64,000 bases of DNA, taken from Phycisphaerales bacterium (GTDB taxonomy: Bacteria > Planctomycetota > Phycisphaerae > Sedimentisphaerales > Anaerobacaceae). Below are positions 52,991 through 56,705 of the stretch, piece after piece (positions within the stretch are counted from its first letter, which is position 1; each line of letters opens with the position of its first letter). The DNA lies in assembly GCA_003141315.1 (NCBI GenBank), contig PLLP01000002.1, positions 1 to 64,000 on the forward strand, given 5' to 3'. The notes under the pieces are model-generated. The model worked only from the letters and a program-made list of their open reading frames with translations. It was not told where the DNA came from and ran no database searches. Both the position numbers and the translations under genes were made by a program.

Positions 52991-53558
52991 GTTAAAAAAA
53001 GAAGATTGATAATTGACTAAAAACGATTAACGAATAACTTCCTTAAAAAGATTAAGACAAGTATTGATAATTGATTATCAACGATTGATGATTTCAGGAA
53101 AAAAAGACTGGAAAATTTCAAAAAATGGCCATTTTTTGGAAAATTTTTGAGTGGTTTTTAGGGATAAACCTTGTTTTTAGCTTAAAAATGATGGTGAGAG
53201 GTTTATCTATTTTGTGTATTTAAGCTATTTAGCCCTGTTTAACGCAAAAATAGGGTCGTTTCGAGGCACTTTTGGGTCACTTTTGGGTAGTTTTGAGCGA
53301 ATTTTACCTGAAAATGATTGAAAATGAGTGGTTTTTGACACGTTTTTGATACTAAAATTGTATGTTAAGATTGAAGATTTTGAGTTGTGAAAATAGGATA
53401 AGCAGGTGAAATAGGAAGGCGATTAGACGGGATTGTTTGACCGCAAAGGACGGATGACAGAGGACAGAAAACAGACACAAAACAAAAACACTTCAGAGGC
53501 CACAGAGAAAATTAGACAGGAAGGCACGGAGAGTTTTTTTATTTTCTCGAAAAATATC
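52991..53558. other. AT-rich strand-switch region, candidate replication origin
   Basis: This 570-base gap has no ORF with a ribosome-binding site. It contains a degenerate direct repeat of about 29 bases (ATTGATAATTGA...AACGATT at about 53005 and 53063), a perfect TTGATAA-TTGA-TTATCAA palindrome (53064-53081), repeated CACTTTTGGGT (53268-53290), and at its right end a CACAGAG/GGCACGGAG tract. Genes run leftward on its left and rightward (leader gene, dnaN, dciA, gyrB) on its right. I found no perfect DnaA box, so the origin assignment is inference. Confidence 0.4.
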
Positions 53559-53587
53559 TTGACAAACATAGTCCAATTCTATATTAT
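53559..53587 (+). promoter_or_regulatory. sigma-70 promoter of the AIPR-like locus
   Basis: TTGACA is followed after exactly 17 bases by TATTAT, five of six matching the -10. Transcription would begin near 53594 and give a leader of about 210 bases before the AIPR-like ORF. Confidence 0.85.
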
Positions 53588-53593
53588 GTCTCC

Positions 53594-53721
53594 TTTATTA
53601 GTTTAAGGCGTGGATGCGCCGAAAACAGAAAACCTTGACAGGGCCGGATGGCCAGAAAGGAGATGAAAAAATGGGCTGACTTAATTTATGCAGAAACTAC
53701 ACAGTGGCGTGTAGTTTTTTT
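53594..53721 (+). ncRNA. structured leader or small RNA upstream of the AIPR-like gene
   Basis: A transcript of about 128 bases would run from the promoter to an intrinsic terminator. It contains GGCG-TGGATG-CGCC (53607-53620) and GGCC-GGAT-GGCC (53642-53653); a third, TGCC-GGAT-GGCA (53771-53782), lies past the terminator just before the ORF ribosome-binding site. All expose GGA in the loop, the signature bound by CsrA/RsmA proteins. An AAGGAG at 53657-53662 precedes either a three-codon ORF (ATGGGCTGA at 53671) or an abutting 41-codon ORF. It may be an attenuated leader or an independent RNA. Confidence 0.5.
53694..53721 (+). terminator. intrinsic terminator inside the AIPR-like leader
   Basis: AAACTACAC and GTGTAGTTT form a perfect nine-base stem with an AGTGGC loop followed by a T run. 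It lies about 85 bases before the ORF start, so transcripts must read through it for the protein to be made. Confidence 0.88.
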
Positions 53722-53804
53722 CTGCGCTTTCAAATTTGGGCTCGGACGAGCGAAAAACATTTCAAAAAAGTGCCGGATGGCAAAATAAATTAAAGGAGAA
53801 ATAT

Positions 53805-54992
53805 ATGAAACGTGTGGTAATCAATCCCGAGTACTCTCGGAAATATCCAGACCCATTGAACAAACCCGAAACTGAAAACCCGCGAAATATTGAACATTAT
53901 GTGCTTCTTTGTAAGGCCTCTACTCTGCCTGTGGATATACCGATGGACCCTGATCCTCGACGTCCAAAGGTCGACCGGCTCATCTACAAGAACGTCAAAG
54001 ATAGCCTACTGAACGAAGAGGACCCAACATTCCATCTCAAAAACAAGGGCATGACTATTATTGCCCATGGCGTTAATTCAGATGATAAAACAGCAGTCGA
54101 AGTTCTCTTTGACACGGGAGACGGGATTGTCGATGGTGCGCACACTTATGAGATTATCAGACAAAACAAGGAGGACTGTCCGGATAACCAATATGTAAGG
54201 ATGGAAATTTTGACAGGCATTCCGCAAGACATGGTCCCATCCATAGCCGAAGGTCTGAACACGGCTGTTCAGGTGCAAGAGATGAGCTTGATGAACCTCA
54301 AAGAGGAATTTAAATGGATTCAAGATACTTTAGCGGGAGAACAATATGCAGACCAGATTGCATATGAAGAGAATCAAGACAAGCCATTTGATGTAAGAGA
54401 CATCGTAGCTTTCCTGACGATCTTTAATATTGATGAGTTCCCCGATAGCAGTAGGCATCCCAAAGTCGCATACACCAGCAAAGCAGAATGCTTAGCTCTC
54501 TACAAGAAGAGTCAAGAATCCTACAAGAAGCTGAAGCCGCTCATTAAAGATATCCTGATTCTGCATGACTACATTCAGGCAAAAAGCAATGAATTATACA
54601 ACAAGAAATATGCTGGCAAGGGTGGGAACCTCAAGTTTTACCAACACTATAAAAAACCCAAAACAAAACCTCGGCGTAAATTCCAATTGCTTTTTACAGG
54701 CAAAGAGACTGAGTTCAAACTGTATGACGGTGCTTTGTATCCTGTTCTCGGAGCATTCAGATACCTTGTGGAGCAAAAAAATGGATCCCAATGCTTTTCT
54801 TGGAAAATGGGATCTCTTAACGAGGTAAAACGAATATTTGATGAAATCGGTGGCGATTTGATAAACGCCACAAGAAACACAAGCGACAGCCATGCAAAAA
54901 ATCCCAATGCTATAGGCAAGGATGAAAGTCACTGGGACAATCTTTATAATAAAGTGGCTATAACTTATTTACAAAAGACGAACGTGTCATAG
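53805..54992 (+). CDS. AIPR-like (abortive infection type) protein
   Basis: The 395-residue protein starts MKRVVINPEYSRKYPDPLNK; AAAGGAG lies seven bases upstream of this ATG, and an open frame 69 bases upstream is leader. The centre reads FHLKNKGMTIIAHGVNSDDK, then DGIVDGAHTYEIIRQ, the arrangement seen in AIPR-family abortive infection proteins and related DGQHR proteins. No membrane segment or signal peptide is present. Codon use is more A/T-rich than in the neighbours, consistent with horizontal acquisition. It stands alone with its own promoter, leader and terminator between rpmE and dnaN. Phage defence is the family-based expectation, not shown here. Confidence 0.65.
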   Translation: MKRVVINPEYSRKYPDPLNKPETENPRNIEHYVLLCKASTLPVDIPMDPDPRRPKVDRLIYKNVKDSLLNEEDPTFHLKNKGMTIIAHGVNSDDKTAVEVLFDTGDGIVDGAHTYEIIRQNKEDCPDNQYVRMEILTGIPQDMVPSIAEGLNTAVQVQEMSLMNLKEEFKWIQDTLAGEQYADQIAYEENQDKPFDVRDIVAFLTIFNIDEFPDSSRHPKVAYTSKAECLALYKKSQESYKKLKPLIKDILILHDYIQAKSNELYNKKYAGKGGNLKFYQHYKKPKTKPRRKFQLLFTGKETEFKLYDGALYPVLGAFRYLVEQKNGSQCFSWKMGSLNEVKRIFDEIGGDLINATRNTSDSHAKNPNAIGKDESHWDNLYNKVAITYLQKTNVS

Positions 54993-55012
54993 GAACACAA
55001 AGAATGATCTCT

Positions 55013-55047
55013 AAGGGCGGCCTCAAAACATTTTGCGACCGCCCTTT
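55013..55047 (+). terminator. intrinsic terminator after the AIPR-like gene
   Basis: AAGGGCGG and CCGCCCTT arms enclose about 18 bases including CAAAACATTTTG, which can extend the stem. TTTCTTTG follows. It starts 21 bases after the stop codon. Confidence 0.85.
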
Positions 55048-55269
55048 CTTTGTAAACAGGAGTTTTTCTAGATATGTGTCCGATTTCCCGAAAGGCAGGA
55101 GTAAGCAGACATTTAGAAAAACATTGTAAGGTTTAGCAAATTGTGAGGATAAGGATTTCATATCTAAAGGTACGAAAGACTCCCAATATTACCAAAAATT
55201 ATTTGGTTCGGAGTTTTCTGAGGATGTCCCAGCAGTCGCCTCGGGCAAACCGAAGGTGGAGGGTTAACC

Positions 55270-55480
55270 AACCCCCGGTAAAACCGGGGGCTAAATACAA
55301 AAAAAGCAACCCCGCAAATATAACGGCAGAAACCGCCCCCCGGCACAGGTCCGGGGGCTAACCAAAGACAAAAGCAACCCCCGCTGCTGTCTTGCGACAG
55401 CAAGACGCGGGGGTTAAATACCGTCGCCGTGCCGGCGACGGCTAAACAAAAAGATAAACCCCCAGTGAAACTGGGGGCTA
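55270..55480. repeat. array of five hairpin repeats upstream of dnaN
   Basis: Hairpins: 55270-55293 (AACCCCCGG arm), 55336-55360 (CCCCCGG arm), 55374-55417 (AACCCCCGC arm with an inner CTTGCGACAGCAAG-type extension), 55419-55449 (CCGTCGCC palindrome, also in scpB) and 55457-55480 (AACCCCCAG arm). They share AAACC before and GGGGGCTAAA after the stem; stems differ but remain complementary. Linkers GCAACGACAGAAACCGCCCC repeat too. The array at 43777-43910 is the same family in the opposite orientation. Confidence 0.88.
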
Positions 55481-55543
55481 AATGCAACGACAGAAACCGC
55501 CCCGACCACAGGTGTCCTGCTGAAAAGTTTTTAATAAAAACCC

Positions 55544-55572
55544 TTGAGAAAAACGGGATAACTGTTTAGACT
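55544..55572 (+). promoter_or_regulatory. sigma-70-like promoter for dnaN
   Basis: TTGAGA and TAGACT are 17 bases apart. The -35 matches five of six and the -10 four of six. The dnaN ATG is 27 bases downstream. Confidence 0.6.
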
Positions 55573-55598
55573 ATTGCCATATATTTGGGAGATTAGCT

Positions 55599-56705
55599 AT
55601 GAAAGTGAATTTTAACAGGGCGGCCCTCGCCGATGCACTGGCACTTCTGGCGTCAGTCGTGCCGGCCAGGACGCCGAAACCGATTTTACGATGCGTTAGG
55701 CTCACCGCAGGCGAAAAGGAAGTGACCATCCGCGCCACAGACCTCGAAGTCGGCGTCAACTACCACTTATACGAGGTGCAGGTCGAGAGCAGCGGCGACG
55801 TCGTTGTGCCGGCTGACAAGCTCACCGCCATCGTCCGCGAGAGCGCCGATGAGGTACTCCAGTTCGAGATGACCGACAGCAATTGCACTATCGCCGGCGC
55901 CGACAGTAAATATACCATTTATGGCCAGGATGCCTCCTCGTTCCCGCAGGTGCCGGGCTTCGACGGCGAGGGCGACCTCGAAGTCGGCCTGCAGACCCTC
56001 CAGTCCGCCATCCGGCAGACTATTTTCGCCACCGCCAGGGAAAGCACGCGCTACGCCCTCAACGGCATCCTCTGGGAGATAAAAGGGAAAAAACTGGCGC
56101 TCGTTGCCACCGATGGCCGAAGGCTCGCCCGAAACAGGATTAGCCTGTCAGCCGCTCCCGCAAAAAATCTCGAGGCCTCCAAGATAATCGTGCCGGCCAA
56201 GACCCTCGCACTGCTCGAAAAAATTACCGGCGACCAGAAAGAAACCGTAGCCGTTAAATTCGTCGATAACCAGGTAATCATCGCCGCAGGAAACGTCGTT
56301 ATCAGCTCGAACCTCGTCGAGGGAACTTTCCCCAAATACGAGGATATTATCCCGTCCGATTACGACAAAAAGCTTACCCTGCAAACCGAGACCGTCCTAA
56401 GCGCCGTCAGGCGGGCGGCACTGCTCACCAGCGAGGAATCGCGGGGCATCAGGCTCGCCGTCAGCAAAAATAAGCTGGTCTTTTCCTGCAGGACACCGGA
56501 AACCGGCGACGCCACAATCGATATGCAAATCGACTACAGCGGCTCACCGGTCGAAATAGGCTTTAATCCTCAGTATATAATCGATTGCCTCCGGATTCTT
56601 ACGGAGAGCACTTTTGAGCTGGAGCTGGGAAGCCCCGACAGGCCCGGCCTGATTAAATGCGGAAAGGATTTCCTCTACGTCCTTATGCCCATCAATCTCA
56701 GCTGA
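55599..56705 (+). CDS. dnaN: DNA polymerase III beta sliding clamp
   Basis: The 368-residue protein has the three-domain clamp fold, beginning MKVNFNRAALADALALLASV, with RYALNGILWEIKGKKLALVA in the middle domain and a C-terminal FLYVLMPINLS, where clamps end in a conserved M-P-M/I segment. The ring holds polymerase on DNA. GGGAG lies nine bases upstream of the ATG. dnaA does not precede it; the hairpin array and the AIPR-like locus do. Confidence 0.97.
   Translation: MKVNFNRAALADALALLASVVPARTPKPILRCVRLTAGEKEVTIRATDLEVGVNYHLYEVQVESSGDVVVPADKLTAIVRESADEVLQFEMTDSNCTIAGADSKYTIYGQDASSFPQVPGFDGEGDLEVGLQTLQSAIRQTIFATARESTRYALNGILWEIKGKKLALVATDGRRLARNRISLSAAPAKNLEASKIIVPAKTLALLEKITGDQKETVAVKFVDNQVIIAAGNVVISSNLVEGTFPKYEDIIPSDYDKKLTLQTETVLSAVRRAALLTSEESRGIRLAVSKNKLVFSCRTPETGDATIDMQIDYSGSPVEIGFNPQYIIDCLRILTESTFELELGSPDRPGLIKCGKDFLYVLMPINLS

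What the first reader, a model, noticed from the sequence alone, without database searches (positions are those of the whole stretch)
53559..55047. AIPR-like gene with promoter, GGA-loop hairpins and an intrinsic terminator ahead of the ORF
The order is strong sigma-70 promoter, two GGA-loop hairpins, a perfect terminator hairpin, a third GGAT hairpin, then ribosome-binding site and a lone AIPR-type gene. Protein synthesis requires read-through. This resembles RNA-controlled toxin or defence loci, including type III toxin-antitoxin layouts, and CsrA-bound leaders. A defence gene gated by antitermination or by an RNA would be new for this family.
Basis: partly seen in the sequence, partly recalled or inferred. 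Interest (0 to 1): 0.75.

Follow-up and report, generated by a model that had tools for sequence, protein, structure and literature searches.

The report
RNA-gated leader of an AIPR gene
A lone bacterial gene of an abortive-infection (anti-phage) family sits behind a conserved RNA leader with four near-identical small hairpins and a transcription stop signal, so the cell apparently makes a short RNA by default and the protein only when the stop is overrun; the layout is known from a few other anti-phage genes but not from this family.

Summary
In this Phycisphaerae-type genome an 11/12 sigma-70 promoter (53559-53587) is followed by a ~210-nt leader with FOUR hairpins carrying GGAU/GGAC in the loop (0.2 expected, 0/2000 shuffles), an intrinsic terminator between pairs 1-2 and 3-4, an RBS, and a stand-alone AIPR gene (PF10592, 53805-54992). 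The only close orthologue found (59% identity, another genus, different neighbours) has the same promoter, four hairpins, terminator and RBS, with compensatory stem changes and unchanged GGA loops. The leader is more conserved (76%) than the coding sequence (66%); the flanks are not conserved. The leader is an internal duplication (hairpin-hairpin-RBS-ATG, twice) and occurs nowhere else in 161 genomes of the order. More distant AIPR genes have other, sequence-unrelated structured leaders, or (Bacillota plasmids) a divergent HTH repressor gene. Best reading: a dedicated double gate (attenuator plus translational block) on a probably harmful effector, read by a GGA-loop protein, most likely CsrA. 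Chief rival: a type III-like RNA antitoxin binding AIPR itself, as for RCd22-AbiF. Nothing here separates the two decisively. It is new for AIPR but a variant of a known kind.

The parts
53559..53587 (+). sigma-70-type promoter, TTGACA-17-TATTAT; predicted start of transcription about 53594
   Evidence: 11/12; orthologue has TTGACA-16-TAGAAT at the same place, 11/12
53607..53620 (+). GGA hairpin H1, GGCGU[GGAU]GCGCC (module A)
   Evidence: covarying in L003
53642..53653 (+). GGA hairpin H2, GGCC[GGAU]GGCC (module A); L003 UGCU[GGAU]AGCA
53656..53679 (+). AAAGGAG plus two-codon ORF ATG GGC TGA (53671-53679), end of module A; L003 has AAAGGAG...ATG GTT TAG
53690..53725 (+). intrinsic terminator between modules A and B (core stem 53696-53715, U-tract to 53721)
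   Evidence: listed as terminator in L003; one both-side and one one-side pair change
53740..53751 (+). GGA hairpin H4, GCUC[GGAC]GAGC (module B)
53771..53782 (+). GGA hairpin H5, UGCC[GGAU]GGCA (module B); L003 GGGC[GGAU]GCCC
53792..53798 (+). ribosome-binding site AAAGGAG, GGA 20 nt after that of H5 (17 nt in L003)
53805..54992 (+). stand-alone AIPR gene, 395 aa; residues 30-155 model as a ParB-like domain, helical C-terminal part
   Evidence: Pfam; model; fold comparison; orthologue alignment
55013..55049 (+). terminator-like inverted repeat after the gene (AAGGGCGG ... CCGCCCTT)
   Evidence: sequence; L003 has a listed terminator after its gene

Best explanation
The leader is a dedicated cis-acting RNA control element that keeps a potentially harmful AIPR effector low. 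(1) Transcription from 53559 mostly stops at 53721 and gives a ~128-nt RNA with two GGA hairpins and a RBS-like GGA (inferred). (2) Read-through transcripts carry a second copy of the same module in front of the gene. A protein that reads GGA in 4-bp hairpin loops binds H5 and the GGA of the Shine-Dalgarno sequence and blocks ribosomes, as CsrA does on glgC. CsrA is the most likely reader: two copies are encoded in the genome (inferred). Shown: conserved, duplicated, selected RNA structure, the terminator, and exclusive linkage to the AIPR gene.
For: Four GGA hairpins, 0/2000 shuffles. All eight loops in two genomes keep GGA[U/C] while stems change: 4 both-side changes and 0 broken pairs between genomes; over the four modules 31/32 cells paired, 6 both-side changes, 0/500 shuffles, and sliding destroys it. 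Modules A and B align in both genomes, a duplication. Leader 76% vs CDS 66% vs flanks at random level. R1 finds only the two AIPR leaders in 161 genomes of the order; R2 finds only the same four modules in 89 genomes of the family. Promoter and terminator are found independently in the orthologue. csrA twice in this genome, both ending VHR(K/R)EVYE. H5 to SD spacing 20 and 17 nt, H1-H2 34 and 36, H4-H5 31 and 29, inside the 10-63 nt bridging range; SELEX stems of four or fewer pairs and the glgC hairpin+SD pair (PMC7652899).
Against: None of the eight hairpins has A two bases before GGA; the CsrA SELEX consensus keeps ACA and GGA in all ligands. GGAY-tetraloop hairpins are not enriched upstream of other genes of this contig (3 in 173 regions; control loops 0-4), so there is no sign of a wider regulon of this form. 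CsrA genes also occur in 14 of 16 searched genomes whose AIPR leaders lack GGA hairpins. Exclusive linkage to one gene family suits a dedicated RNA-protein pair at least as well. Only two independent sequences of this leader exist.
Confidence: 0.45

Rival explanations
1. Type III-like RNA antitoxin: the short RNA (or the repeated GGA hairpins) binds the AIPR protein itself and keeps it inactive; the terminator sets an excess of RNA over mRNA. When phage shuts host transcription down, the RNA is lost and AIPR acts.
For: Same order of parts as RCd22-AbiF of C. difficile: promoter, two hairpin motifs, Rho-independent terminator, RBS, abi gene, 115-nt RNA plus read-through, RNA binds the toxin (PMC12373285). 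The leader occurs only with its gene and travels with it. Other AIPR clades carry their own structured leaders in the same place: A8 with 7 of 18 pairs changed on both sides, L105 z -3.2, L029 z -2.4; overall lower fold z-scores than control genes, p 0.005.
Against: No near-identical tandem repeats. The GGA hairpins are not shared by other AIPR leaders, so AIPR would have to change its RNA target altogether. Two hairpins lie after the terminator, outside the short RNA. The other leaders show no clear terminator.
Confidence: 0.3
2. Plain attenuated leader: the hairpins and terminator lower expression or stabilise the RNA, without a specific reader or signal.
For: AbiD1 of Lactococcus lactis has a terminator before the gene and low read-through, and the terminator itself was found to play no major regulatory part (PMC2661086).
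Against: Unchanged GGA loops on changing stems, in a duplicated module, point to recognition of the loop. The leader is better conserved than the gene.
Confidence: 0.15
3. CsrB/RsmY-like sponge RNA that acts on the whole CsrA network and merely lies upstream of AIPR.
For: Promoter, two GGA hairpins plus a single-stranded GGA, and a terminator give an RsmY-sized RNA.
Against: Absent from all other genomes of the family; CsrA was present in all ten relatives checked; a second copy of the module lies in the AIPR 5' UTR.
Confidence: 0.07

Closest known systems
RCd22-AbiF of Clostridioides difficile (Rfam RF03085 abiF motif; PMC12373285)
   Same: Promoter, two short hairpin motifs, Rho-independent terminator, RBS, single Abi-family gene; ~115-nt RNA there, ~128 nt predicted here
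   Different: Protein is AIPR (PF10592), not Abi_2/AbiF; RNA shows no Rfam match; hairpins have GGA loops; a second module copy lies between terminator and gene; no binding data
AbiD1 leader of Lactococcus lactis (PMC2661086)
   Same: Short terminated transcript and low read-through in front of an abortive-infection gene, RBS in structure
   Different: Short AU-rich leader, activated by a phage protein, no repeated hairpins
Type III toxin-antitoxin systems (ToxIN, CptIN, TenpIN; PMC5086642)
   Same: RNA upstream, one promoter, terminator between RNA and gene
   Different: No tandem-repeat array; the protein is AIPR with a ParB-like model, not a recognised ToxN relative
CsrA-repressed leaders such as E. 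coli glgC (PMC7652899)
   Same: GGA in a small hairpin loop just upstream of a GGA-bearing Shine-Dalgarno sequence, bridging distance
   Different: Lacks the ANGGAN/ACA context in the hairpins; has an internal terminator and module duplication
HTH-AIPR pairs on Bacillota plasmids (L022-L025, L131, L132)
   Same: Related AIPR gene (28-32% identity) under what looks like dedicated control
   Different: Control is a divergent helix-turn-helix gene, not an RNA leader

Membership tests
AIPR (PF10592) | Profile match over curated cut-off | tested here: met
   87.9 bits vs cut-off 25; orthologue 77.3
AIPR as described with an N-terminal HEPN domain (PMC3506569) | N-terminal HEPN domain | tested here: not met
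   No HEPN in Pfam scan; residues 30-155 model as ParB-like
Type III toxin-antitoxin | Single promoter, RNA upstream, Rho-independent terminator between RNA and gene | tested here: met
   By sequence only:
Type III toxin-antitoxin | Array of near-identical tandem repeats | tested here: not met
   Only a 13-nt, 92% two-copy repeat (53640, 53769) in the leader; repeated structure but divergent sequence
Type III toxin-antitoxin | Toxin of the ToxN/AbiQ fold | tested here: inconclusive
   Pfam gives AIPR only; fold comparison gives ParB-like matches, absence of a fold there is no proof
Type III toxin-antitoxin | RNA neutralises the toxin by direct binding | not testable with these tools
   needs biochemistry
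abiF motif (RF03085) | Covariance-model match | tested here: not met
   No match at gathering threshold, none in the permissive scan of 53400-55600
CsrA-controlled leader | GGA in hairpin loops and a GGA site in the Shine-Dalgarno region | tested here: met
CsrA-controlled leader | A at -2 of GGA (ANGGAN; ACA in SELEX) | tested here: not met
   -2 bases are G, C, U, C and G, C, U, G in the hairpins of the two genomes; A only at the RBS-like sites
CsrA-controlled leader | CsrA encoded in the genome | tested here: met
   two genes in G000, four in G008
CsrA-controlled leader | Binding and regulation by CsrA | not testable with these tools
   needs gel shift, CLIP or reporters

The most novel reading that the evidence does not exclude
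AIPR genes form a family of RNA-guarded defence effectors: each lineage carries its own structured RNA just upstream that binds or controls its AIPR protein and diverges with it (GGA-hairpin RNA here, two-hairpin RNA in other Phycisphaerae, other folds in viral contigs), a new class of RNA-protein abortive-infection modules.
Probability: 0.25. Interest if true: 0.8.

Novelty: new variant of a known kind. Interest (0 to 1): 0.52.

Why it matters
AIPR is an old name for an abortive-infection family whose mechanism and trigger I could not find described. A conserved RNA gate in front of it gives a direct handle on what turns it on. It would add a protein family with a ParB-like predicted domain to the short list of anti-phage genes held back by a terminator-bearing RNA (AbiF, AbiD1, type III systems), and possibly a first link between CsrA and phage defence in Planctomycetota.

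Tried and rejected
Rfam: no match in the window at gathering threshold, only chance snRNA-like hits in the permissive scan. Small protein encoded in the leader: a 46-codon ORF (53648-53788) is not conserved in the orthologue. General GGA-hairpin regulon on the contig: not seen in 424 kb or 173 upstream regions. Leader copies elsewhere: weak R1/R2 hits (E 0.04 or more) lack paired GGA hairpins. Viral contigs with the H4 hairpin letters have no companion GGA hairpins of this leader, and the H4-H5 pattern gives none. ANTAR-type antiterminator: the hexaloops lack the conserved A1/G4 (own knowledge). CsrA presence as an explanation of leader type: uninformative, since CsrA is nearly universal in the clade. 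Solved relatives of AIPR by sequence: none; Foldseek alone gave no significant match.

Full report
What is there. The window lies on contig C12 of a 2.35-Mb genome whose close relative G008 is recorded as a Phycisphaerae bacterium. Between rpmE (minus strand) and dnaN lies a lone gene, 53805-54992, 395 aa, AIPR family. The listed ORF starts at TTG 53736, but ATG 53805 has the RBS and matches the orthologue's start.

The leader. The promoter is TTGACA-17-TATTAT. Four hairpins have GGAU or GGAC in the loop; chance gives 0.21 and none of 2000 shuffles reaches four. A terminator hairpin (-16 kcal/mol, z -4.1) lies between pairs. No other promoter-like site lies on the + strand before the gene, so translation of AIPR from this promoter needs read-through.

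Conservation. AIPR orthologues are rare: 4 of 99 genomes searched (the own genome included) had any match and only one other was close (59%, L003). L003 carries the whole leader. Its promoter (11/12) and terminator are picked up independently. In the 210-column alignment all 44 scored cells pair, with 4 double-sided changes and none broken. Leader identity is 76%, coding sequence 66%, flanks at the random level, and the neighbouring genes differ, so leader and gene behave as one cassette. A covariance model of the leader finds only these two loci in 89 genomes of the family and 161 of the order.

Duplication. Modules A (53607-53673) and B (53739-53807) align with each other in both genomes: hairpin, linker, hairpin, AAAGGAG-type site, ATG. 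On the four modules 31 of 32 cells pair, six cells change on both sides, no shuffle of 500 matches that, and sliding the partners breaks it. Module A ends in a two-codon ORF, ATG GGC TGA (ATG GTT TAG in L003). Its stops are not aligned between the genomes, so this may be chance.

Other AIPR genes. The GGA hairpins are absent from more distant homologues. Several of these nevertheless have a compact structured leader between the -10 box and the RBS. Seven leaders of one Phycisphaerae group share two hairpins with 7 of 18 pairs changed on both sides. A viral-contig AIPR (L105) has a closed stem-loop, z -3.2. Over 26 AIPR leaders the median fold z is -1.5 against -0.5 for 115 control genes, p 0.005; some rows are related, so this is suggestive only, and a few (L047, L033) show no structure. 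On Bacillota plasmids six of seven inspected AIPR genes have a divergent helix-turn-helix gene instead. I infer that AIPR genes tend to carry a dedicated control element, of changing kind, as expected of a harmful effector.

The protein. AlphaFold (ten sequences, pLDDT 85, pTM 0.61) gives an N-terminal domain whose best matches are ParB, Noc and PadC (Z 5.3-6.8, about 95 residues, 3.1-3.6 A for Noc and most others), with SspE and BrxU/GmrSD lower. Z below 8 is middling, but all the top rows are of one superfamily, and the NPR and DGxHT motifs of A3 sit where ParB-like proteins carry their nucleotide-binding motifs (own knowledge). No activity can be claimed.

Mechanism. The loops stay GGA[U/C] while stems change, so something reads the loop. 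CsrA is the known reader of such hairpins, is encoded twice here, and the hairpin-plus-SD pair at 20 and 17 nt fits bridging. Against it, the upstream A of the consensus is missing in every hairpin, and the contig shows no wider regulon of this form. The rival is direct binding of AIPR by the RNA, as shown for RCd22-AbiF with the same order of parts. I put CsrA-type double gating at 0.45, an RNA antitoxin at 0.3 and passive attenuation at 0.15. The broader claim that this is a selected RNA control element of the AIPR gene I hold at about 0.85.

Novelty. Terminator-bearing RNA leaders of abortive-infection genes are known (AbiF, AbiD1, type III). For AIPR I found no such report in the searched literature and no Rfam family. 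Hence: new variant of a known kind.

Noticed in passing
L011, L013, L014, L016, L092, L094 (about 90 nt before the AIPR start): A second, sequence-unrelated two-hairpin leader RNA before AIPR genes of other Phycisphaerae, with double-sided pair changes; no Rfam match in the members scanned.
   Followed up: partly
L029:2141-2245 (minus strand): AIPR leader with a 7-bp closing stem; loop UAGGAC is complementary to GUCCUA in a downstream hairpin loop, a possible kissing or pseudoknot contact.
   Followed up: no
L105:1680-1765: AIPR gene on a viral contig with a strongly folded ~75-nt leader right after its -10 box.
   Followed up: partly
L022-L025, L131, L132: AIPR genes on Bacillota plasmids regularly stand next to a divergent small helix-turn-helix gene, an apparent two-gene module.
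   Followed up: partly
window 55270-55500: Several GC-rich hairpin repeats (e.g. AACCCCCGGTAAAACCGGGGGCTAAA) between AIPR and dnaN.
   Followed up: no
window 53671-53679; L003 1376-1384: Two-codon ORF (ATG-one codon-stop) behind a perfect AAAGGAG in both leaders, just before the terminator.
   Followed up: partly
window 53683-53692 and 53785-53795: In the predicted fold CUUAAUUUAU before the terminator pairs with AUAAAUUAAAG over the RBS of AIPR; weaker in L003.
   Followed up: no
L134 (Bacillus phage Goe8): AIPR gene in a Bacillus phage between a putative tRNA-His guanylyltransferase gene and a sigma factor gene.
   Followed up: no
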